IMG/VR virus record: IMGVR_UViG_3300024348_000028
Location: 1-64,000 of that record
Origin: a virus
DNA length: 64,000 bases
Direction: 5' to 3' (one strand)
The notes beneath the pieces are model-generated. The model was not told the origin of the DNA and did no database searches. It saw nothing but the letters and a program-made list of their open reading frames with translations. The stretch's first letter is position 1, and each line of letters begins with the position of its first letter. This document shows, one piece after another, positions 5,443-35,799 of this stretch. The position numbers and the translations under genes are program-made.

Positions 5443-7938
5443 TTAATGAAAGAAATACTCTGCTTCAAGAACAGAAGAAATATTTAAAGATCCAATTGCA
5501 GGTGTGCTTGGAAGTTCAACTCCTAATGAATTCTCAATTTCTAACTTTAGTTTTTCAAGCAAGGGTTCTTTATGCATAGTATAAAATTCTTCTCTTGTAT
5601 ACTGACGCATCAATGGAACATATGGAGCAGCACACCCATATGAATCATGGACAAAACTAAAATTAGTAATACCAGCCGTAAGCATTTTATCCATAGTCAT
5701 CCACATATGACTTGCATCAAGACTGTGGATATAATTTGGACTTACTGCCAAGTTAACTTGAGTATCATCAATCTGACTTGAATCTGTAGAACCAAAATGA
5801 AGTTCTTTCATATTGAACAATTTTGCAATTGATCTCCTTGTTAGAATTTCATAATACTGATGGACAACTTTAAAACCACATGGAGTAGTCCACTCAAGAT
5901 TCTTACCCATATTGCTTGCTATATCAGCAATTTGCTTTAGCCATACCTTACCATAATTTGCATTAGTTAAAGTATTTTTTAAGCACTTGTCAATATAAGT
6001 AGCCAGCTCCATAACTGCACCAGCAATACGATCTTTGTTAACCCAATCTAAATGTCCTTCAGTCTTACAGTATCTTCGAATACCGTAGAATGTAACACCA
6101 TATGGATCTGTCATAACAGCTCTCTTGCATACTGATCTTGGAATTTTGTTATCCCAATGATTTAAAAATAACTGTGCCCAATCCTTCGTATCTGGATCTG
6201 CATTGTCATCTTTAGAATCCTTTGACATTGAATTAGTCATAGAATCAGCAACAAAACCATATAAATCCTGTGGATCTTTATGTCCAGTAAGATTTACTTT
6301 ATAAGCAAGATCAACATCACGCATAATAGCAGCCCAATGTTGAACACCATTACATGAACCATCAATTTGAATTGGTAGTTGAGTAAAACCATCTGTTCTA
6401 CAAAGTTCAAAGATTGCAGCTAGTCTTTGAAAACTAGGGTTCTTTTTCTTTTTGTCACTAACCCAAAACCATCGTGTTTCAAATGGATCTTTTGCAGTAT
6501 CTTGAATAAGATCAAGATTATCATCAACCCATTTAATACGATCTGCAAATGGTAACTTATCTTGATCAAACAAATTAGCAAGATGAACCTTTAACCAGTA
6601 TCTACCGTTTTCAGTTTGCTTTATTGGTTTAGCAAAGTGAATTAAACTACGATCAAAATCTGAACTCTGTGGTGACAATAAATCACAAGCAGTATAAGCA
6701 CGACCTCTAAAGTCACAGGTATAGATGTGATAAAAGAAACCCCACTTCATCAAATCATTTGCAACCTTAAGCCTCACCAACATACGACCACGGGATCGTT
6801 CTTCTTTATACCAAGAAGACCAAGACTCTTCTTTACGCTGACACCACTTAGCCTTTTCTTCTTTTGTTCCAGTTTCAGGATAATCCTCACCAAAATCAAA
6901 AGCATCAAAGTTATACGCTGGAAGATTAGCTTCCCTTGTATTATTGTGGAACATTGCATTCATTACTGCATAGACTTTATAATTAATAGCCCACTCAGTA
7001 TGCATCAATGCGTTCAATCCACGAACAACCATTTCACTAGGAGTGGAGTTTTTTTGAACTACAGTCTCATCCCAATGAACATCTCTAAACTTCTGAACAA
7101 CTGGTTTACGAATCCAAGGCATTAAGTTACCACCAGATGAAGTAACAGTATGTTCAGCAGGAGGAACAATCATAGGACGATACAATAGACTTGCTCTTGA
7201 GATCAAATCCTTGTGTCTATTATGAAGTTCCTGAAGAAGTTCATCAGTAAAACTTACAACAACTCTTTCATACCAACGATTACCAATACGCTTTCTAAAG
7301 TTTCTGATGATAATGATATTACTCATCTCAGCAATGCGAAGCATATGATGACCAAAATCTTCGCGTTGCTTTCTAGTAAATTGCTTTTTGTTGATGCAAT
7401 TCATTTTACCAGAAAAAGCACGGCATCGCTTAACAGTCCAATTCTTTTGGTAATGAGACTGCTTTAACCAATCATCTCTAAAATCTTTCTTAGCTGCTTG
7501 ATATGAAACAATATCAATAGCCATGTTAGAAATCTGATGTGCCATATGCTGTGCAGATGGTAAAGGTAGGCTATGAATATCTCCATCCTTACCATCCATT
7601 TTACGATCCCAAGTATTTGAGTTAAACCACTCAAGCATTAAACATCGGATAGTAATGTCAGCCATCTTACCAGCACCAACAGCAAACAAAGGATATGCCC
7701 AATCAGGAGTCTTACGATTCTTTGAAACCATATCAATCCACTCTTGATAGAATGGAGTGAGATGAATAACACAACTATCTAATAGACCCTGTTCAGGATA
7801 TCCTTCGTCAGGCGATCTGTTATACTCTTCCCAATATCTATTGTTGGAAAGATTTAACATTTCTTCTTCAAGCATTGCTTGATAGTTTTTTCTACTCTCC
7901 TGAACTTCTGGCTTTAGTAAATCCCATAACTCAGGCAT
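5443..7938 (-). CDS. T7-type single-subunit RNA polymerase
   Basis: Phage RNA polymerase expected to transcribe the middle and late genes from phage-specific promoters. At 831 residues it is a little shorter than T7's 883. The catalytic core is complete: DFRGRAYTACDLLSPQ in the T/DxxGR region near residue 400, motif A as QIDGSCNGVQHWAA (metal Asp), motif B as KRAVMTDPYGV with the Lys and Tyr that bind the nucleotide, and motif C as FVHDSYGCAA with the second metal Asp. It ends in aromatic residues (AEYFFH), like the FAFA end of T7. It lies after the tRNA and small-gene region, which matches the T7 plan in which early genes read by the host enzyme precede it. Its promoter sequence could not be defined from this window. 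Confidence 0.97.
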   Translation of the reverse strand: MPELWDLLKPEVQESRKNYQAMLEEEMLNLSNNRYWEEYNRSPDEGYPEQGLLDSCVIHLTPFYQEWIDMVSKNRKTPDWAYPLFAVGAGKMADITIRCLMLEWFNSNTWDRKMDGKDGDIHSLPLPSAQHMAHQISNMAIDIVSYQAAKKDFRDDWLKQSHYQKNWTVKRCRAFSGKMNCINKKQFTRKQREDFGHHMLRIAEMSNIIIIRNFRKRIGNRWYERVVVSFTDELLQELHNRHKDLISRASLLYRPMIVPPAEHTVTSSGGNLMPWIRKPVVQKFRDVHWDETVVQKNSTPSEMVVRGLNALMHTEWAINYKVYAVMNAMFHNNTREANLPAYNFDAFDFGEDYPETGTKEEKAKWCQRKEESWSSWYKEERSRGRMLVRLKVANDLMKWGFFYHIYTCDFRGRAYTACDLLSPQSSDFDRSLIHFAKPIKQTENGRYWLKVHLANLFDQDKLPFADRIKWVDDNLDLIQDTAKDPFETRWFWVSDKKKKNPSFQRLAAIFELCRTDGFTQLPIQIDGSCNGVQHWAAIMRDVDLAYKVNLTGHKDPQDLYGFVADSMTNSMSKDSKDDNADPDTKDWAQLFLNHWDNKIPRSVCKRAVMTDPYGVTFYGIRRYCKTEGHLDWVNKDRIAGAVMELATYIDKCLKNTLTNANYGKVWLKQIADIASNMGKNLEWTTPCGFKVVHQYYEILTRRSIAKLFNMKELHFGSTDSSQIDDTQVNLAVSPNYIHSLDASHMWMTMDKMLTAGITNFSFVHDSYGCAAPYVPLMRQYTREEFYTMHKEPLLEKLKLEIENSLGVELPSTPAIGSLNISSVLEAEYFFH

Positions 7939-13699: not shown

Positions 13700-13820
13700 T
13701 TAGATTCCTCTTATCCTTGTAATAAAGAAACAAGATCACGGGGGACAGTACACAAAGAACAATAACCTTTATGTACCAACTGATAATAACAAACTCATCC
13801 ATTGTTAGTTTGTCCGTCAT
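13689..13820 (-). CDS. small single-span membrane protein, 43 aa
   Basis: Reads MTDKLTMDEFVIISWYIKVI followed by more hydrophobic residues (VLCVLSPVILFLYY) and a basic end KDKRNLNGN, so the C-terminus would stay in the cytoplasm. The start is uncertain: the ATG at 13820 or the later ATG at 13802, which overlaps the upstream stop. No good Shine-Dalgarno is visible, so translation is probably coupled. A role at the membrane, such as superinfection exclusion, is possible but unsupported. Confidence 0.55.
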   Translation of the reverse strand: MTDKLTMDEFVIISWYIKVIVLCVLSPVILFLYYKDKRNLNGN

Positions 13821-14064
13821 TATTGACATAATCACATTGTACATAATCACATTGTGTAACCATGTCATAATATAGCGCACTAACACAAGACATTTTAGAA
13901 GTAAGCATAATCATTTTTGAGTTATAATGAAACTCATCATCTACTACTTCTCTTTCAAATTCAACTTTCTTTATATCATCTGCAAGACTAATCATTTTAT
14001 CTCGCAAACAAGCAAGAACAGTTTCAAATTGTTCCCCACTAAGTGTAGTTTCACGATTCTTCAT
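13795..14064 (-). CDS. hypothetical protein, 89 aa
   Basis: Starts MKNRETTLSGEQFETVLACL at 14064 with AAGGAA upstream. The body is helical; the C-terminus carries a tandem repeat CDYVQCDYV, encoded by a 15-base direct repeat (core ACATAATCACATTGT on the plus strand near 13830-13855). The repeat looks recent and may vary between relatives. Function unknown. Confidence 0.65.
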   Translation of the reverse strand: MKNRETTLSGEQFETVLACLRDKMISLADDIKKVEFEREVVDDEFHYNSKMIMLTSKMSCVSALYYDMVTQCDYVQCDYVNNDGQTNNG

Positions 14065-14164
14065 TTGATTCCTTTGCTTGAATAATAGCGATTATTGCTT
14101 GCTCCAACACACACAACAAATCACAACATCCCGCATAACATTTACAAGACTTTTGTTCTTCCAT
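14051..14164 (-). CDS. cysteine-rich mini-protein, 37 aa
   Basis: A short frame with a consensus Shine-Dalgarno (AGGAGG, six bases before the ATG at 14164). It reads MEEQKSCKCYAGCCDLLCVL and then EQAIIAIIQAKESNEES. Five cysteines fall within twelve residues (C7, C9, C13, C14, C18), enough for a zinc or disulfide-linked fold, followed by an amphipathic helix. It overlaps the next gene by fourteen bases. The strong ribosome site makes it credible despite its size. Confidence 0.65.
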   Translation of the reverse strand: MEEQKSCKCYAGCCDLLCVLEQAIIAIIQAKESNEES

Positions 14165-14200
14165 TATAGTCCTCCTAAAAAAAGAAAAGAACAGAGTAAG

Positions 14201-14336
14201 TTCAATCGTGGGGTGGAATCGAACCACCCAATGCTTATAATTTGTTACAGCAAACTAGGAAAGTAATCTTGGTATTATTCTAGTGTCTGTAAACACTAGC
14301 GATTATTTCCAGCATTTCATCTCCGACACGATTGAA
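14201..14336 (-). ncRNA. tRNA-like domain with long internal insertion
   Basis: A canonical T arm (GGTGG/CCACC around TTCGATT) runs directly into the strand CACGATTGAA, whose perfect ten-base partner TTCAATCGTG lies 136 bases upstream rather than the usual 73. Between them are the hairpin CTAGTGT/ACACTAG, a TAAT/ATTA hairpin, and TTTG/CAAA around CTGTAA. A D stem is not recognisable. This is therefore not a standard tRNA; it resembles the tRNA half of tmRNA in lacking a D stem, though no tag frame or G3-U70 pair is seen. Confidence 0.6.
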
Positions 14337-14514
14337 GATACTCTGCAAGTGTATCGTAGGGGATTCTCCCGAAAGAGAATCCCGTGGCGAACCACTTGCC
14401 TACCTAGGTTATGGACTGCAAGTATACCTAGTACCCTACATGTGTCTCCTTTGTATAGGTGTAGTTGCTATACAACATATGTGGTTATCTAATAGGCTAC
14501 CACGCGAAATGCCT

Positions 14515-14549
14515 AAAGATATCCATAAGATATTTCACCTATGGATACC
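14515..14549 (-). repeat. GAAAUAU-loop hairpin, copy 3
   Basis: Minus strand arms GGTATCCATA and TATGGATATC (ten pairs, one G-U) enclose a loop GGTGAAATATCT. It is nearly identical to copy 4 at 15541-15575. Confidence 0.65.
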
Positions 14550-14783
14550 CGATCTGTTCCTATATATTATTCAGATGGAACAACTCTGGTATGCACTACT
14601 CTGCATAACTGAGTTGACAATAGTTATTGTATTGTTGCCTTGGGTTATCATCCTGCTGCAACCGCAGAAATGAATCACCAATACAACAACCATCATCAAT
14701 AAGACTCCAATAGTATCAGTCAATACTATTGGACGCACTATGCCTAACTTCTATTTATACTCGCATAGTCGAGTTGTTAGAAA

Positions 14784-14818
14784 CATTCCCATGATATTAT
14801 ATTTCTACCATGAGAATG
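14784..14818 (-). repeat. GAAAUAU-loop hairpin, copy 1
   Basis: Minus strand arms CATTCTCATG and CATGGGAATG (ten pairs, one U-G) enclose a loop beginning GTAGAAATAT. A seven-base helix at 14771-14777 with 14833-14839 encloses the whole hairpin. Confidence 0.6.
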
Positions 14819-14847
14819 TAGAGAGTTACGTGACAACTCACAAGAAA

Positions 14848-14877
14848 CACTCCCATGATATTTCTACCATGAGAATG
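14848..14877 (-). repeat. GAAAUAU-loop hairpin, copy 2
   Basis: Same arms as copy 1 with one base change that leaves a T-G pair (CATTCTCATG with CATGGGAGTG) and a loop GTAGAAATAT. The change preserves pairing on the transcribed strand. Confidence 0.6.
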
Positions 14878-14890
14878 CGGGAGAGATCAG

Positions 14891-14980
14891 TTATCCAAGT
14901 TTGTTTACATTGTGCAATGCAACACAAGTAATAACAATACAAGTAACAACAACTAAAGCAATTGCAAGAAGCTCAAACAT
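14891..14980 (-). CDS. tiny membrane protein, 29 aa
   Basis: ATG at 14980 with AGAGG upstream, overlapping the end of the preceding gene. It reads MFELLAIALVVVTCIVITCV then ALHNVNKLG. Residues 3-22 form one hydrophobic membrane span with a short hydrophilic tail. Single-span peptides of this size are frequent among early phage genes. The ribosome site and overlap make it plausible, but the short length leaves doubt. Confidence 0.5.
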   Translation of the reverse strand: MFELLAIALVVVTCIVITCVALHNVNKLG

Positions 14981-15350
14981 TCTCAAACCTCTGAACCTTC
15001 TTCATCAGAGCACGATTCAACATCTGCTCGATTTCAAGACTTGCCTGCAAATCCTTAACAGTATCCTGCAAAGACTTGACAGTATAGCGAAGTTCCTTCA
15101 ACTCAGTATCAGTCAGATCAACACCTGCAATGTCCTTCCAGTTCATACTGTTTTCCTTTATAGTTTCAGGTTCAATAACCTTGGGGTCATACCAACGCTC
15201 ACCACAACACTCACAGAAATCTGTACTAAACCATTCTTGCTTCTTTAGTTCAGCCCAAGCATCATCTACAGATTCAGCACGAACAACAAACTCAACCGGG
15301 CCTTCATAATAGCCGCCGCTATTGTTCTGAACAAACTTATAGGTGTTCAT
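14973..15350 (-). CDS. hypothetical protein with CxCC motif, 125 aa
   Basis: Starts MNTYKFVQNNSGGYYEGPVE at 15350 with AAAGG nine bases upstream; the open frame extends to 15497 but that part is probably a structured leader. An N-terminal alpha/beta segment (FVVRAESVDDAWAELKKQEWF) is followed by FCECCGERWYDP, a possible zinc knuckle, and a C-terminal coiled coil (LTDTELKELRYTVKSLQDTVKDLQASLEIEQML). Proteins with AESxDDAW...CCGxRW are recurrent in phages, without known function. A perfect CCGGC-TAT-GCCGG hairpin lies just upstream of the ribosome site and may control initiation. Confidence 0.75.
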   Translation of the reverse strand: MNTYKFVQNNSGGYYEGPVEFVVRAESVDDAWAELKKQEWFSTDFCECCGERWYDPKVIEPETIKENSMNWKDIAGVDLTDTELKELRYTVKSLQDTVKDLQASLEIEQMLNRALMKKVQRFENV

Positions 15351-15540
15351 GTGCAAACCTTTCCCGGCATAGCCGGATAAGAGAGTGTGGTTTATGTCTA
15401 CAGTTATTCCATAAGGAATAGTTAGAGTCCTTACACAAGACCCAACATTACAAGGTTCACCACAAACCCTAGTTACTTCTACAATCCCAAGGCACACAAA
15501 GAGGGTGCTACTTGTTGCAGAGATAGTAACTATTCAACTA

Positions 15541-15575
15541 AAAGATATCCATAGGATATTTCACCCATGAATACC
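15541..15575 (-). repeat. GAAAUAU-loop hairpin, copy 4
   Basis: Arms GGTATTCAT and ATGGATATC pair with G-U replacements relative to copy 3; the loop contains GGTGAAATATCC. The stem differences keep pairing on the minus strand RNA. Confidence 0.65.
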
Positions 15576-15795
15576 AATATCAGGGAGGATTCTCTGGTTT
15601 GTCGTATCTGGTGAATAGAGTAACGCGGTCCGTGCATATAAGAACCATTGATTATTGAGGGGTCGTTATTTGCACCACATAGCGAGTCTATCCAATACGG
15701 GTCGCTTCCACAATCCTGCCTAGTTACTTGGGGTAACAACTCCTGCCCGTCTATTCTCCAATACTGAAATGGAGGGCATGACCTACAGTACAGGG

Positions 15796-15829
15796 AAAGA
15801 TATCCAATGGTTATTCACCAATGGATACC
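15796..15829 (-). repeat. GAAAUAU-loop hairpin family, copy 5 (divergent)
   Basis: Arms GGTATCCA and TGGATATC enclose a loop beginning TTGGTGAATAACC. The stem and the GGTGAA start of the loop are kept while the rest differs; TGGT and ACCA can extend pairing inside the loop. Confidence 0.55.
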
Positions 15830-15834
15830 AAAGA

Positions 15835-16597: not shown

Positions 16598-17253
16598 TCG
16601 GAATCCTTGCCCATTCCGGGCGGTTATAGTAACCCTATGCACCAGACCATCTGATGCATGGGATTCGATACCCTACCATAGCAGGATACCGAATCCCCCC
16701 CGAACGGGTTGCCAAGGATTCCTGATATTCACGCTGTATCTTTCGGGAACCATGCGGGTGCATGGACTCGGTACTCGACCATCGCTAGAAAAGAGCAGGA
16801 ATCCACCCATTCGGGGAGGATCGGAAATAGATTGATTAGCCGTAGAATTGCATGGTAGCGGATTACACCGATACATTACCATGCACGCCCATTTCGGGCG
16901 GCCTTGACCGATCCACACACACTAGCGGACCCCCGATCATGCAGGGACCATTGCGCCTTCCGGGCACTAGTGGCAGAACCTCGGCCAACCATCCAATCGC
17001 GTGGATGGAGAAACCGCGTAGGCGATACCCTCGACCTCGCATCGTGTGCATCACGCAGGGGATAACTGTTACCTTGTTGCCGCCCAACTAGCGCGGAGTC
17101 CAACATAGAGTACTGGTTTCACCACCCATGATGCCCTTGCGGGTCATTAGAGATCGTTGAATGTCGCATTTGCGCCCCACCCCCGCACAACTCGGGGGAC
17201 ACCCCATCATAGCGGATACCCAATTCCCCACTAACCCATTCCGGGTGTTTGTC

Positions 17254-17312
17254 GTTATCGGCCCCGTGGGTGTAGGCCGTCCGATAACCTGCACAGGGCC
17301 GTGTCCGATAAC
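17254..17312 (-). repeat. one helix arm with two alternative partners
   Basis: GTTATCGG at 17254-17261 can pair perfectly with CCGATAAC at 17281-17288 or with an identical copy at 17305-17312. The two partner copies lie in a direct repeat (GGCCGT followed by CCGATAAC, with GT inserted in the second copy). Only one pairing can form at a time. Confidence 0.6.
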
Positions 17313-17316
17313 GCGA

Positions 17317-17354
17317 GGGGGGCACGGGGGGACGCGCGCGGGGGATTTAGGGGG
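17317..17354 (+). other. G-quadruplex-forming tract
   Basis: Four guanine runs of 6, 6, 5 and 5 bases on the plus strand, separated by loops of 3, 8 and 5 bases. That meets the usual definition of an intramolecular G-quadruplex several times over. The plus strand is the template for all genes here, so a folded tract would obstruct transcription of, or replication through, this spot next to tRNA-Asn. Nothing comparable was noticed elsewhere in the window. Confidence 0.7.
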
Positions 17355-17397
17355 ATACCCTCTTATAAATTTTTGACCCCTAAGCCGATTTTCCAAA

Positions 17398-17608: not shown

Positions 17609-17641
17609 TATAAATACAAATATTTTAAAAACTATAGAATT

Positions 17642-17674
17642 CCCATAGGAGTATCTTAAGGATACCCCTATGGG
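17642..17674 (-). terminator. long hairpin behind the giant virion gene
   Basis: Minus strand arms CCCATAGGGGTATC and GATACTCCTATGGG form fourteen continuous pairs with one G-U, loop CTTAA. It lies 27 bases behind the stop of the 3542-aa gene. A TTTTT run follows about eleven bases later, so it fits a late transcription terminator, though the spacing is looser than usual. Confidence 0.65.
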
Positions 17675-17698
17675 AAATATCTATAGCTCCAACTATTT
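17675..17698 (-). promoter_or_regulatory. hairpin with GTTGGAGCTA loop behind the giant gene
   Basis: AAATA pairs with TATTT directly around the loop GTTGGAGCTATAGA on the minus strand. The stem sequence differs completely from the copies at 4184-4216 and 11112-11139 while the loop is kept, which is the pattern expected of a conserved RNA hairpin. Confidence 0.6.
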
Positions 17699-17700
17699 GT

Positions 17701-20700
17701 TTACTGATTATTGGACATGTCTTTCAATAGGTTGGCCAAGTCTGTAGATACACCTTTATTATTGGTATATGTTATTGGTCTTTGTATTGAATTCTTTCTA
17801 TCTTGTAAGAACTTGTTGGTTTCTTCTAGGTATCTAGCTCTATTATCCTTTAGTTTGTTTTCGATTTCTCTAGACTGAACTGGGACAATATTATGATTAC
17901 TAGCAACATTCTCAGGTTTATTAATATACTTATTCTTTCCTTTTTGGATAAGCTTAAGGTATTTATTTAATGAGTTGTTTTCATCAATTACTTCTAGTTC
18001 TTGTAATAACCTAGCTGGTACTGCAACTGGGCTTTTATTGAATGTAATGTTATAAGGAATAATATCACCGAACTTGGCAATCATTTCTTCCTTAGACATT
18101 TCACCACCCTTAGCTAATAATTCCTTACCAGAACCCATTGCCTTGCTTACATAAGCATTGAGTACACTAAAGGCTGGAGGAGAAACTGGGTTTGAGAATC
18201 CCTTGTAGGTTCCTCCAGTTAGTTCTGAGAAGGTAGCTAGCGTTCCTGAGAATAGGCCGGATAGAGAACCAAAGACTGGGAGTGTACTGGCCATTCTAAA
18301 TACTGATGTACTTGGGTCTTTTAACTCTTCCTTAATATCTTTAACATCTCTGCCATTTAACCAATCTATTATAAGTTCAGACATATATGTTAAAGCTGAG
18401 TATAGAATAACTATTTCAGCTAGAACAACTGTTGGTTTCTTTAGCTGTAGGTTTTCAAGTACACCGCTTTTGAATGATTGTGACCATTGCAATAGCGATC
18501 TAATAAATCTACCAATACCAGTTTTAGAGGTAATTGAAATATCTTTATTTAATCCTCTTGATTCTGAAATTAAACCATCAGTTGAGATCTGTGTTTCAAG
18601 TGCGTATACAAAATCACTAAAGGCTTCATCTAATACTTCTTTTGGAATAGGACCAATGGGGCCAGTCATATAAGCATCTACCTTTGCTTGTAGTGCTGTT
18701 AGATTAAAGACTCCATTCTTGTTAGTTCCTGTTTGTTCCATGATATACTTTAGTGCCTTTAACTTATCAGCATCTAGTAATCTAAATCTCATAAAAGTTA
18801 AAGCATGATCCCAGTTACCACCAAACCCAGCTTCTCTAGCTAGTTTCTTTTGAAGAGCTGCTAATTGTCTATCTGCCTTTTCTGAAGTAATAGATAATGC
18901 TTGTAGTCTTTCTAGTTCTGCTTTATTGGCTGGATTTTCCATTAATGCCAACAGTCTTAAAGCAGCTCCGCTTACAATATACTTAGCATTTCTTTGTGTA
19001 AATCTTCCTAGTGCAAAGTGTTTTGAAATACCAGTAATATACTTTACTGAACCAACTTCTACACCAAGATTACCTATTGTTTCAAGAGCAGCTGTTAGTT
19101 TATTGCTATCTTCTCTTGTCTTAGTCAATCTTTTCCACCAACTATCATTTAAAGATGGAACACCTGAAACGGAGTTTGTTTGTAAATATCTATCTTCAAT
19201 TTCAGAAAGATAACTACGAATTCCGTGTACGGTTAAGAATGCTTGTTGTTTTAATGCTTCTGATGGTCTTCTATCTAAGAACATCTTAAATACACCAAAC
19301 GCATTATTTATAGTTTCTTTAATACCAACTTCTGGTAGTGCTGTAATAACATTGATAAAGGATTCAGCAGTGCTGCGAAGACCCCAACCTTGACCTGATG
19401 TTGCTCTTAGAATACCACCAGCAGATCTACTAAGTTGTTCTCCTGTTTCACCGTATGCAGACATAATGCGGGGATTTCTACCAGCATATTCAGCATAATC
19501 TTCAGCTAGTCTTTTCATACCACCTTGAAGATCTTTCTGTAGTGATTCATTTGATCCAGCCATTCTCATTAGTAGTTTACTGGCTGCATCAAATAGTTCA
19601 TAGATACGAACACCCTTTACACCAAGCATTCTATCTAGTTCTGCTTGTACCAATAATTCAAAGCCTCTATGATTAATTAGATTATCATAAGCAGCTAGTG
19701 GATTGGTTCTGATAATATCTTTTATTAGAGGACTATTAAATACTTCCTTCCAATCAAGATTCTTAACAGCAAATCCTTGATTATCTCCACCCTTACCAAA
19801 TAATTGTAAGAATGCGTTATCACCCATTTCTGGCTTTTGAATATATCTATGGTAATTACCTTCTCTTAATTTAAAGGCTAGTAGTTCTTCCATCATAACT
19901 TGAAGAACTGGTTTTGTATTACCAAAGTTAGCCTTCCATTGATCTGCAATGTGAGTAGTAACTCCATCTACTGTTTCCATATATCTAGCCAAATCTCTTG
20001 GACTTAGATCGTCTACCTTTTCTGGAATAGCGCAGATTACAATTTGACCTGTTGCTGGATCTTCATAAGAGAAGAACTTAGTATCAGCTTCTCTTCTAAT
20101 TTCAGGAATCTTCTTAAGATCAGTACCGGGAGCATATCGTCTATTACCAGCCTTAGCCTCTAGTCTTGAAAGAGTATCAGCATCAAAACCAGTCTCTCCA
20201 ATATGTAGTTGATCTCTACCTTCCTTACCACGGCTTGTTAATGGGTTTGATTCTGTATCCCATAACCAACCCATAGCAAGCATAATACTACGATCTAATG
20301 TTTCATCGTTTCTAATAGTATCTTTTCTTACTCTAACCATTTCATCAACGATTTGAGTACGATCATTCTTAGTTACTTTATCACGATCAAATGTTAGTGC
20401 AAAGTAGTTTTCAGCTGGAACTGGATTACCAGCGTCATCCTTAATACTAATCCATTCAGTAGAATTTTCTAGATCTAGGATGAACTTATTTCTACGAATT
20501 GTTTCATCTCTTAGATTCTTTGCTGAAGTAAAGACAGCATCAATGTATGCTGGTTGAGCAGATGAGTTAATAGCAAGAACTGCTGTTTGAATATCTGCTC
20601 TTTGTAGTGGTCGTTTAGTTGATACTAAAGATTTAACAATTTCTAGTTCAACTGCTTGCATTACTCGTAGATCTCCTGTTTGAATAGCAAGATCTCTGTT

Positions 20701-33655: not shown

Positions 33656-34114
33656 TTAATTTCCTTTATCAATAAGTATTGTATTCTTTTTTATTTTTTC
33701 TGTCTGTAGTTTTTCAATTTCACTTGTAAATTCTTTTTCAGCTTCTTCAACACTAGTTTTGTTTGTGTGTATTAGCGTAGTCCAATATGTATCAGCATGG
33801 GCTATTCCAGCTCTCTTTGCACCCCGTATAGCAGGGATAACATGATAACCAGTAAAGCGTTGTGGACCATCGTTTGTAGTGACTGTTATATCACCACTTA
33901 TAATACAGATATTATCTATATTTGAAAAAGCACCAGTAATTAGAGTACCTGCTGGTATAAAAATTGTTCTTGAATACATAGATCCAAATATAAGACCTTC
34001 TGTTTGTAGAAATACTTGTGGCATATCTGAAGCAATTTTTTCCAACTCAGTTACTTTTTGATTATTAATTCTTTGTAGTTCTTCTTTATCAACTATTGGG
34101 AGTATATCTGTCAC
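33656..34114 (-). CDS. cupin-like hypothetical protein, 152 aa
   Basis: Starts with GTG at 34114, overlapping the terminase stop (GTGA) and preceded by AGGAGA. The middle (residues about 35-115) is a run of beta strands: GSMYSRTIFIPAGTLITGA then IDNICIISGDITVTTNDGP then FTGYHVIPAIRGAKRAGIA, a layout typical of a single cupin barrel. Metal-binding histidines of classic cupins are mostly missing. It lies between terminase and internal virion proteins; related small proteins occur at this place in other aquatic podoviruses. Function unknown. Confidence 0.75.
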   Translation of the reverse strand: MTDILPIVDKEELQRINNQKVTELEKIASDMPQVFLQTEGLIFGSMYSRTIFIPAGTLITGAFSNIDNICIISGDITVTTNDGPQRFTGYHVIPAIRGAKRAGIAHADTYWTTLIHTNKTSVEEAEKEFTSEIEKLQTEKIKKNTILIDKGN

Positions 34115-35799
34115 CTTCTAAATCTCCTTTTTATGATGCTTGGATATAGTTTTTGGTTAATATTTGGATTGCCATTAACTATTAAAGCACCACTTACTCT
34201 TTCTCCAAGTAATCCTAAAGATCTTTTATTACTCATCCAATCTTTAATCTGCTGTTTATATTCTTCTTTTTTATTCTTTTGTATTTGAGAATCAGCATCA
34301 ATTGATAAAGAATCTTGCCAATAGGCTACAGCACTAGCTAAAATATCTACTCTATCGTCATGCTTAAGACTTCCACGACGCTCTGTTATTCTTGTTATTT
34401 GTTTTTGATTTTCTTGATTCTTAATAGCTTTGGTATTAAAAATTAATTTATGTACTGCCATTATTGGTTCAAGAACTCTAATAATTCTTTGCTCTTTATT
34501 TCCAGTAACTTTAAAATCTTCTATTGCTACTTGTCCACAGATCTCAGAAACGACTGGCCTTAGTAAATTACAATACATAGCATCACCAAAGTTAGCTTCA
34601 ACTCTAATTAGATTAATATCATATTGATAAGCTAACTTAGCAATCTTCTTTAATAAGGCTTCTTCGTATCCTCCTTGCAAACCAAGCAATTCATGTACGA
34701 TGACATAGCCATTGACAAATGACGCAATGCAAATAGCCGTTTCATCTGATCCACGGCCACTAGGGTCAATAAACATTGCAGTCTGCATATACGGTATAAA
34801 ATTAGGGCTAATCCATTGTGGTTCATATAGTAGATCTCCTGAAATACCAAACGATTCAATTTGTTTCTTTGGAGTACGCTTTTCCCAAGTAATCTTTTCA
34901 GGGAATACTTCAGGATTAACATCAATAACTATTAAATCTTCTAACTTAAGGGGATACTTAGCTCTATCACTAAGGGTAGGATCTAATTTGTAGTGAAGTG
35001 CAAATAATCTTGGACCAATCTTAGCTTCTCTAGACTTAAGTACATCTATAGGGAATCTCTCTGGTTGTGTTGATTCTCCTACTTCTAGCTCCAACTTTAG
35101 GATATATTCTGCACAGTTATCTATTTCACCCGGAACATCTGGATTTGGCATAACTGCTGGAAACTTTATAATAGGATAAGAGTTAGATAATTTAAGATAA
35201 ATACTATCTGTTGATTGATATGTTCCTAGAATACGAATACAACCATCTGGTGTATTGTTTCTAATTTGTTCTAACTCAGCCAACTTATTTAAAAGTTTTT
35301 CTCTTGCTGAAGGAGTATCTGCGTTTTCTTCAATCTCAACATCGTCTACAATAATATCGTCGGCGTGGCTACCAGTTATCTGACCAGTAATACCTCTAGC
35401 ATAGCAAGATAAATCCTGACCGAATACTGTACGACAACCAATATTAAAACCGAATGCACTATCTTTATCAAACTCTTTTGGTTTAAGATGGTTGCAGTAT
35501 GGAACAACTTCTAGGATTTGTCTTACCTGAGCAATAAAGTTAATTGCTCTTAAAGTTGTTGCAGAGATAACCATAATAGTTCTATCTGGATTTGTTAGTA
35601 ATCTCCAACTAGCAAAGCAAGCATTGATTACAGATTTACCTGCACCACGACCAGCCTGTAATTGGAAGTCTCTTGGTCCAGTTTGCATTAGATCTGCCAT
35701 AGCGTATTGTAATGGTGTTGGCTCTCCAAGACCTAAGTACTTAAAACAGGCCCATAGGTGGTTTCTAAAGTCTTCAACCATTTCTTGTGGTGCTTGCAT
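34111..35799 (-). CDS. terminase large subunit (T7 gp19-like)
   Basis: DNA packaging motor ATPase and nuclease, 562 residues. Walker A is QAGRGAGKSV near residue 50; the Walker B strand is DDIIVDDVEIEE near 150; the C-terminal nuclease carries MFIDPSGRGSDETAI near 340 and later Asp residues including KHDDRVDILASAVAYW near 480. Length and order match T7 gp19 (586 aa). The start has TGGAGGA upstream. The small subunit is encoded 50 bases upstream, as expected. Confidence 0.96.
   Translation of the reverse strand: MQAPQEMVEDFRNHLWACFKYLGLGEPTPLQYAMADLMQTGPRDFQLQAGRGAGKSVINACFASWRLLTNPDRTIMVISATTLRAINFIAQVRQILEVVPYCNHLKPKEFDKDSAFGFNIGCRTVFGQDLSCYARGITGQITGSHADDIIVDDVEIEENADTPSAREKLLNKLAELEQIRNNTPDGCIRILGTYQSTDSIYLKLSNSYPIIKFPAVMPNPDVPGEIDNCAEYILKLELEVGESTQPERFPIDVLKSREAKIGPRLFALHYKLDPTLSDRAKYPLKLEDLIVIDVNPEVFPEKITWEKRTPKKQIESFGISGDLLYEPQWISPNFIPYMQTAMFIDPSGRGSDETAICIASFVNGYVIVHELLGLQGGYEEALLKKIAKLAYQYDINLIRVEANFGDAMYCNLLRPVVSEICGQVAIEDFKVTGNKEQRIIRVLEPIMAVHKLIFNTKAIKNQENQKQITRITERRGSLKHDDRVDILASAVAYWQDSLSIDADSQIQKNKKEEYKQQIKDWMSNKRSLGLLGERVSGALIVNGNPNINQKLYPSIIKRRFRR

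What the first reader, a model, noticed from the sequence alone, without database searches (positions are those of the whole stretch)
14201..14890. Second large RNA candidate whose 3' end is a tRNA-like domain
About 690 bases fold into at least eight hairpins and nested helices and end in a T arm joined to a perfect ten-base acceptor-like helix. Large phage RNAs of the GOLLD/ROOL type are known to sit beside or contain tRNA sequences. Such an RNA between a 29-aa gene and a 37-aa gene would be an abundant early transcript.
Basis: partly seen in the sequence, partly recalled or inferred. Interest (0 to 1): 0.82.

Follow-up and report, generated by a model that had tools for sequence, protein, structure and literature searches.

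The report
Modular self-cleaving early phage RNA
Between two tiny early genes of an uncultured T7-like phage lies a roughly 700-base noncoding RNA tract built from interchangeable folded modules, one of them a Pistol self-cutting ribozyme, that related phages shuffle and re-pair while keeping its core; it is a real and apparently undescribed structured RNA, but its tRNA-like end is not a conserved tRNA mimic and its function is unproven.

Summary
The 726-nt gap between a 29-aa and a 37-aa gene folds far below shuffles (z -10.1), has no conserved ORF, and contains the T-arm hairpin and ten-bp helix. Rfam finds no GOLLD, ROOL or tmRNA, but a clear Pistol ribozyme at 14774-14700 (59.5 bits). Eight related T7-like phages carry the same core (about 170 nt) in 247-489-nt gaps, with compensatory changes and a loop pseudoknot re-paired in two lineages. 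The tract is modular: hairpin P, optional modules ending in a conserved hairpin H, core, optional terminal domain, pyrimidine tract, Shine-Dalgarno. H covaries, occurs only in this region, and recurs in two distant relatives. Modules, including Pistol, move between this tract and a second one 1 kb upstream. The supposed acceptor helix closes a pseudoknotted domain rebuilt with different sequence in two other phages; the T-arm is a peripheral hairpin found only in the window and near-identical G008. Flanking genes change while the core stays. Best reading: a self-cleaving early noncoding RNA locus assembled from exchangeable modules. Function is inferred only.

The parts
14891..14980 (-). 29-aa upstream gene (MFELLAIALVVVTCIVITCVALHNVNKLG), looks like a single membrane segment; similar tiny proteins end just upstream of the tract in several relatives
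14839..14886 (-). hairpin P (GCATTCTCATGGTA-GAAA-TATCATGGGAGTGT), opens the tract; present in all nine phages
14780..14827 (-). second copy of hairpin P, directly upstream of the Pistol module
14700..14774 (-). Pistol ribozyme (RF02679, 59.5 bits, gathering 34.5); predicted self-cleavage between G14705 and U14704, by analogy with the family
   Evidence: same element in G002, G006, G008
14553..14699 (-). body of the Pistol module, structured, with compensatory changes between window and G002/G006/G008
14514..14552 (-). hairpin H (12 bp, loop GUGAAAUA), separator in front of the core
14347..14514 (-). core of the RNA, conserved in all nine phages; helices h3, h5, h7, h9, pseudoknot CTACA/TGTAG, long-range pairing GTGGT/ACCAC, UUCG tetraloop
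14192..14345 (-). terminal domain: outer helix 14345-14339/14198-14192, closing helix 14336-14327/14210-14201, inner helix 14316-14311/14235-14230, hairpin 14299-14293/14286-14280, pseudoknot 14292-14287/14250-14245
14211..14229 (-). T-arm-like hairpin GGGTGG-TTCGATT-CCACCC; only in window and G008 (terminal domain 99% identical)
14184..14194 (-). CTGTTCTTTTC pyrimidine tract, kept in all nine phages just upstream of the Shine-Dalgarno sequence
14051..14164 (-). 37-aa downstream gene (MEEQKSCKC...) with AGGAGG; shared only with G008, other genes stand here in the other relatives
15382..15832 (-). second tract (RNA1): H (15832-15795), module A, module B-like, H (15578-15540), module F; its counterpart holds the Pistol module in G002, G006 and G008
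17206..17234 (-). candidate early promoter TTAGTG-N17-TATGAT, hexamers kept in L003, L004 and L121 while the spacer changes in L121
   Evidence: the -35 match to consensus is weak

Best explanation
A noncoding RNA locus of the phage's early region. A transcript in the direction of the genes passes through two tracts of independently folding RNA modules. In the second tract (this finding) a P hairpin opens, optional modules each ending in hairpin H follow, then a pseudoknotted core, an optional pseudoknotted terminal domain, and a pyrimidine tract before the next ribosome-binding site. In this phage one module carries a Pistol ribozyme that should cut the transcript at G14705/U14704, so the downstream RNA (module body, H, core, terminal domain) starts with a 5' hydroxyl, separated from the upstream messenger. 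H and P probably act as separators, perhaps processing sites for a double-strand nuclease such as host RNase III. The modules most likely act as stable structural RNAs, cut loose from or carried in the early transcript, and are exchanged between phages by recombination at H and P. Shown: structure, strand, conservation, modularity, homology to Pistol. Inferred: transcription timing, cleavage in vivo, processing at H, and action in trans.
For: Fold z -10.1. Pistol 59.5 bits and in three relatives. Core: h9 and h3 double changes, loop pseudoknot CTACA/TGTAG replaced by CATC/GATG in G001 and CCTC/GAGG in G006, h7 C-G to T-A. H: 96.3% of cells paired versus 85.3% in shuffles, 26 double-change cells versus 7.6, covariation 0.423 versus 0.217; pair 5-34 is G-U in 16 of 20, which would be A-C on the other strand, so the RNA strand is minus. 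H found only in this region of each genome. Terminal domain: closing helix of 10, 12 or 17 bp at the same offset with different sequence, plus a hairpin-loop pseudoknot; both together in 0 of 5000 shuffles for each of three sequences. Module map shows exchange. Core constant while downstream genes differ (37, 111, 89, 70 or 75 aa). Early position: between the last late gene (17701) and the T7-like RNA polymerase gene (5443-7938), same layout in G015, candidate promoter.
Against: No transcript data. All core sequences come from one phage clade, with many invariant pairs. Each tract stops just before a Shine-Dalgarno sequence, which also fits a leader. The Pistol P2 stem is weak (3 of 4 pairs in the window, one mismatch in G002/G008). 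No partner or target is known, and Pistol lies in this tract in only one of nine phages (in the other tract in three).
Confidence: 0.6

Rival explanations
1. Cis-acting early messenger leader: the folded tract, the pyrimidine tract and the Shine-Dalgarno sequence protect the downstream mRNA from exonucleases or tune translation; Pistol and H only trim the 5' end.
For: The tract always ends shortly before a Shine-Dalgarno sequence with CTGTTCTTTTC between them; pseudoknots and a 5' hydroxyl end can block 5'-dependent decay (established knowledge).
Against: Five different genes stand downstream among nine phages while the core stays; a generic stabiliser does not explain the many different modules.
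Confidence: 0.25
2. A GOLLD/ROOL-like ornate RNA that assembles into a homo-oligomeric cage.
For: Similar size in this phage, pseudoknot richness and company of tRNA genes; GOLLD and ROOL are phage RNAs often near tRNA islands that form nanocages (PMC12286853).
Against: No Rfam match to either family even at E up to 5; in relatives the tract shrinks to 247 nt, shorter than the 659 nt and 800+ nt reported for ROOL and GOLLD; modular exchange was not mentioned in the passages of the paper that I read.
Confidence: 0.1
3. tRNA-like or tmRNA-like RNA whose 3' end is processed by RNase P/Z.
For: A textbook T-loop (TTCGATT) on a 6-bp stem next to a perfect ten-bp helix; a T-loop-like hairpin ATACGG-TTCGACT-CCGTAT also lies in the RNA of distant relative G015 (L107:1253-1271).
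Against: ARAGORN and Rfam find no tRNA or tmRNA; T-arm absent in G001 and G006, whole domain absent in five phages; 16 stacked bp, no CCA.
Confidence: 0.03
4. The repeats H and P are only DNA recombination or mobile repeat sequences, with RNA structure a by-product.
For: Module borders coincide with H and P.
Against: H keeps pairing through changes on both sides and tolerates G-U pairs on one strand only; copies are all in one orientation and only in this region; core and terminal domain, which lack H, also covary.
Confidence: 0.02

Closest known systems
Pistol self-cleaving ribozyme (Rfam RF02679)
   Same: Window 14774-14700 matches the whole model at 59.5 bits with P1, P3, the loop pseudoknot and the AUAAAUA and UUAGGC blocks; a phage setting is typical for Pistol (PMC4604425).
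   Different: Here it is one exchangeable module of a larger noncoding tract, followed by a structured body and hairpin H; P2 is weak.
GOLLD and ROOL RNAs
   Same: Large pseudoknotted phage noncoding RNA in a region with tRNA genes.
   Different: No sequence or covariance-model match; made of interchangeable modules separated by a common hairpin; length 247-726 nt between close relatives; carries a ribozyme.
T7 early-region RNase III hairpins (comparison from general knowledge)
   Same: Hairpins between early genes of a T7-like phage.
   Different: H has a conserved loop (GUGAAAUA) and tail (AUCUUU), and delimits noncoding modules, not only genes; cleavage was not tested.
Theta ribozymes of gut phages (PMC10879173)
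   Same: Self-cleaving ribozymes in phages with tRNA genes.
   Different: Different ribozyme class; here the ribozyme is not beside a tRNA.

Membership tests
Pistol ribozyme | Covariance-model match above gathering score over the whole model | tested here: met
   59.5 versus 34.5 bits, positions 1-68 of 68
Pistol ribozyme | P1 and loop-junction pseudoknot | tested here: met
   ACTCG/CGAGT and CTATG/CATAG, identical in four phages
Pistol ribozyme | P2 stem at the cleavage site | tested here: inconclusive
   3 of 4 pairs in window, 4 of 4 with G-U in G006, one mismatch in G002/G008
Pistol ribozyme | Self-cleavage | not testable with these tools
   needs in-vitro transcription
GOLLD / ROOL | Match to the Rfam covariance model | tested here: not met
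   no match at gathering or at E up to 5 with relaxed filters
GOLLD / ROOL | Homo-oligomeric RNA cage | not testable with these tools
   needs cryo-EM or native gels
GOLLD / ROOL | Phage location near tRNA genes (frequent, not strictly defining) | tested here: met
   six tRNAs at 9.6-17.5 kb
tmRNA / tRNA-like RNA | tRNA or tmRNA model match | tested here: not met
   ARAGORN and Rfam find none here
tmRNA / tRNA-like RNA | 7-bp acceptor plus 5-bp T stem, 3' CCA or CCA-ready end | tested here: not met
   10-bp helix plus 6-bp T stem, no CCA (sequence)
tmRNA / tRNA-like RNA | T-arm conserved in homologues | tested here: not met
   present only in window and G008 (99% identical); absent from the G001 and G006 domains
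Group I/II intron | Rfam intron match | tested here: not met

The most novel reading that the evidence does not exclude
A combinatorial RNA-cassette system: T7-like phages keep an early locus in which about a dozen families of independently folding noncoding RNA modules, separated by a common hairpin and in some cases released by a ribozyme, are gained, lost and reshuffled like anti-defence genes, each acting in trans on a host component.
Probability: 0.25. Interest if true: 0.88.

Novelty: new variant of a known kind. Interest (0 to 1): 0.64.

Why it matters
Large ornate phage RNAs are known but few, and none found in the literature searched is described as a string of interchangeable modules with a common separator hairpin and a built-in ribozyme. 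The system is compact (core about 170 nt), lies in the early region of a T7-like phage and has several natural variants, so it offers a direct way to ask what such RNAs do during takeover of the host and why their modules turn over so fast.

Tried and rejected
Rfam at gathering and relaxed thresholds: no GOLLD, ROOL, tmRNA or intron; only Pistol and tRNAs. blastn against annotated phages with 13800-15300: no match. Scan of GTDB genomes with the H pattern: one hit in a Flammeovirgaceae MAG contig, 18 bits, broken stem, taken as chance. Anchor-protein scan (MPNWC protein): mostly unrelated phages without H. Core model in G015, L125 and other Pistol phages: no credible hit. Host-type promoter scan found no more sites than shuffles. 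Coding potential: the longest ORF in the gap differs between phages on both strands (23-55 aa on the transcribed strand, 25-113 aa on the other). A T7 RNA polymerase class II terminator reading of TCTGTT-CTTTT is suggestive from memory only and was not pursued. RNAalifold places CAAGTG/CACTTG nested around h9, so that pair is not claimed as a pseudoknot.

Full report
Setting. The window is nearly all of a 65,843-base virus record. It encodes a T7-type RNA polymerase (Pfam RNA_pol, 5443-7938), a T7-type terminase (34111-35799) and a 3542-aa protein ending at 17701, all on the minus strand. No isolate in the phage collection is close: the listed RNA polymerase matches are at about 25-30% identity. 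The gene order puts the tract between the last late gene and the RNA polymerase gene, the early region of a T7-like genome; a distant relative (G015, terminase 62%, polymerase 43% identical) has the same layout. A candidate promoter TTAGTG-N17-TATGAT at 17234-17206 keeps both hexamers in four phages. Early transcription is therefore likely but not shown.

Observation. The fold is far below dinucleotide shuffles, z -10.1.

What is there. Rfam gives one hit in the tract, a full-length Pistol ribozyme at 14774-14700. Scans of 2.9 million virus contigs with a conserved core word and with a second core pattern return the same eight contigs; a pattern of hairpin H returns five of these plus one new contig, G015. 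In all eight the tract has the same order as in the window: P hairpin, optional modules, core, optional terminal domain, CTGTTCTTTTC, Shine-Dalgarno sequence, gene. The gap is 247 to 726 nt, the window's being the longest.

Core. Nine sequences, many invariant positions, but the main variable helices keep pairing: h9 has G-C/T-A, T-A/C-G and C-G/T-A exchanges with a constant UUCG loop, h3 an A-T/G-C exchange, h7 a C-G/T-A exchange, and the loop pseudoknot CTACA/TGTAG is rebuilt as CATC/GATG in G001 and CCTC/GAGG in G006 at the same loop position. Helix h5 is only partly kept in G001 and G006 (two of six pairs broken).

Hairpin H. Twenty copies: 96.3% of cells paired, 26 double-change cells against 7.6 in shuffles, covariation 0.423 against 0.217 and at most 0.132 in slid controls. 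A model finds three copies in the window, two to four in each of six relatives and none elsewhere in those genomes, one in G015 at 58.7 bits and one in L125 at 33.6 bits. The model was built with the G015 copy included, so the L125 copy is the independent one. One pair is G-U in 16 of 20 copies, which fits RNA of the minus strand only.

Terminal domain. In window, G001 and G006 a closing helix of 10, 12 or 17 bp starts at the same offset with different sequence, encloses an inner helix at offset 28-30, and a 7-bp hairpin whose loop pairs downstream (TTACAG/CTGTAA in the window; GTATAG/CTATAC in G001 and G006). Closing helix and pseudoknot together occur in 0 of 5000 shuffles of each sequence. 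The T-arm sits as an appendix between the inner and closing helices; G001 has a 4-bp hairpin there and G006 none. The 'tRNA-like end' is thus a local feature of one lineage.

Modules. About a dozen module families appear in different orders in two tracts: for example the Pistol module lies in this tract in the window but in the upstream tract in G002, G006 and G008; modules A, B, C, E, F, N and X are combined differently in the upstream tract. Borders coincide with H or P in most cases. Genes on both sides of the core differ between phages.

How it probably works. Shown by sequence: a structured, modular noncoding RNA on the gene strand with a ribozyme motif. Inferred: the early transcript self-cleaves at G14705/U14704, H and P separate modules and may be cut by a double-strand nuclease, and the released or carried modules act as structural RNAs. 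A generic leader role is the main rival.

Novelty. No matching description was found in Rfam or in eight literature searches; those searches cover open-licence papers only, so absence there is weak evidence. I file it as a new variant of large structured phage RNA, not as GOLLD, ROOL or tmRNA.

Noticed in passing
window 15382-15832 (minus): A second tract of H-delimited RNA modules 1 kb upstream, which exchanges modules with the tract of this finding.
   Followed up: partly
window 16640-17360 (minus): A further GC-rich noncoding stretch with hairpins and a CTGCTCTTTTCT motif at 16798, between tRNA-Asn and the first early gene; partly conserved in relatives.
   Followed up: partly
window 17636-17680: Strong, nearly symmetric hairpin just after the 3542-aa gene, probably the late terminator (chance Rfam hits to MIR398 on both strands).
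   Followed up: no
L107:1253-1271: A T-loop hairpin ATACGG-TTCGACT-CCGTAT follows hairpin H in the distant relative G015, without a tRNA model match nearby.
   Followed up: partly
L125:1692-2120 and L026:1925-2335: A small P-loop kinase (AAA_33; the L026 copy also matches a PHROG polynucleotide kinase family) is encoded close to the H-bearing RNA in two distant relatives; it could act on 5'-hydroxyl RNA ends.
   Followed up: partly
L013:359-2041: Three Pistol ribozymes within 1.7 kb of one unrelated phage contig.
   Followed up: no
L125:1165-1680: A 516-nt noncoding stretch (z -4.9) ending in hairpin H before the kinase gene; no credible Rfam match.
   Followed up: partly
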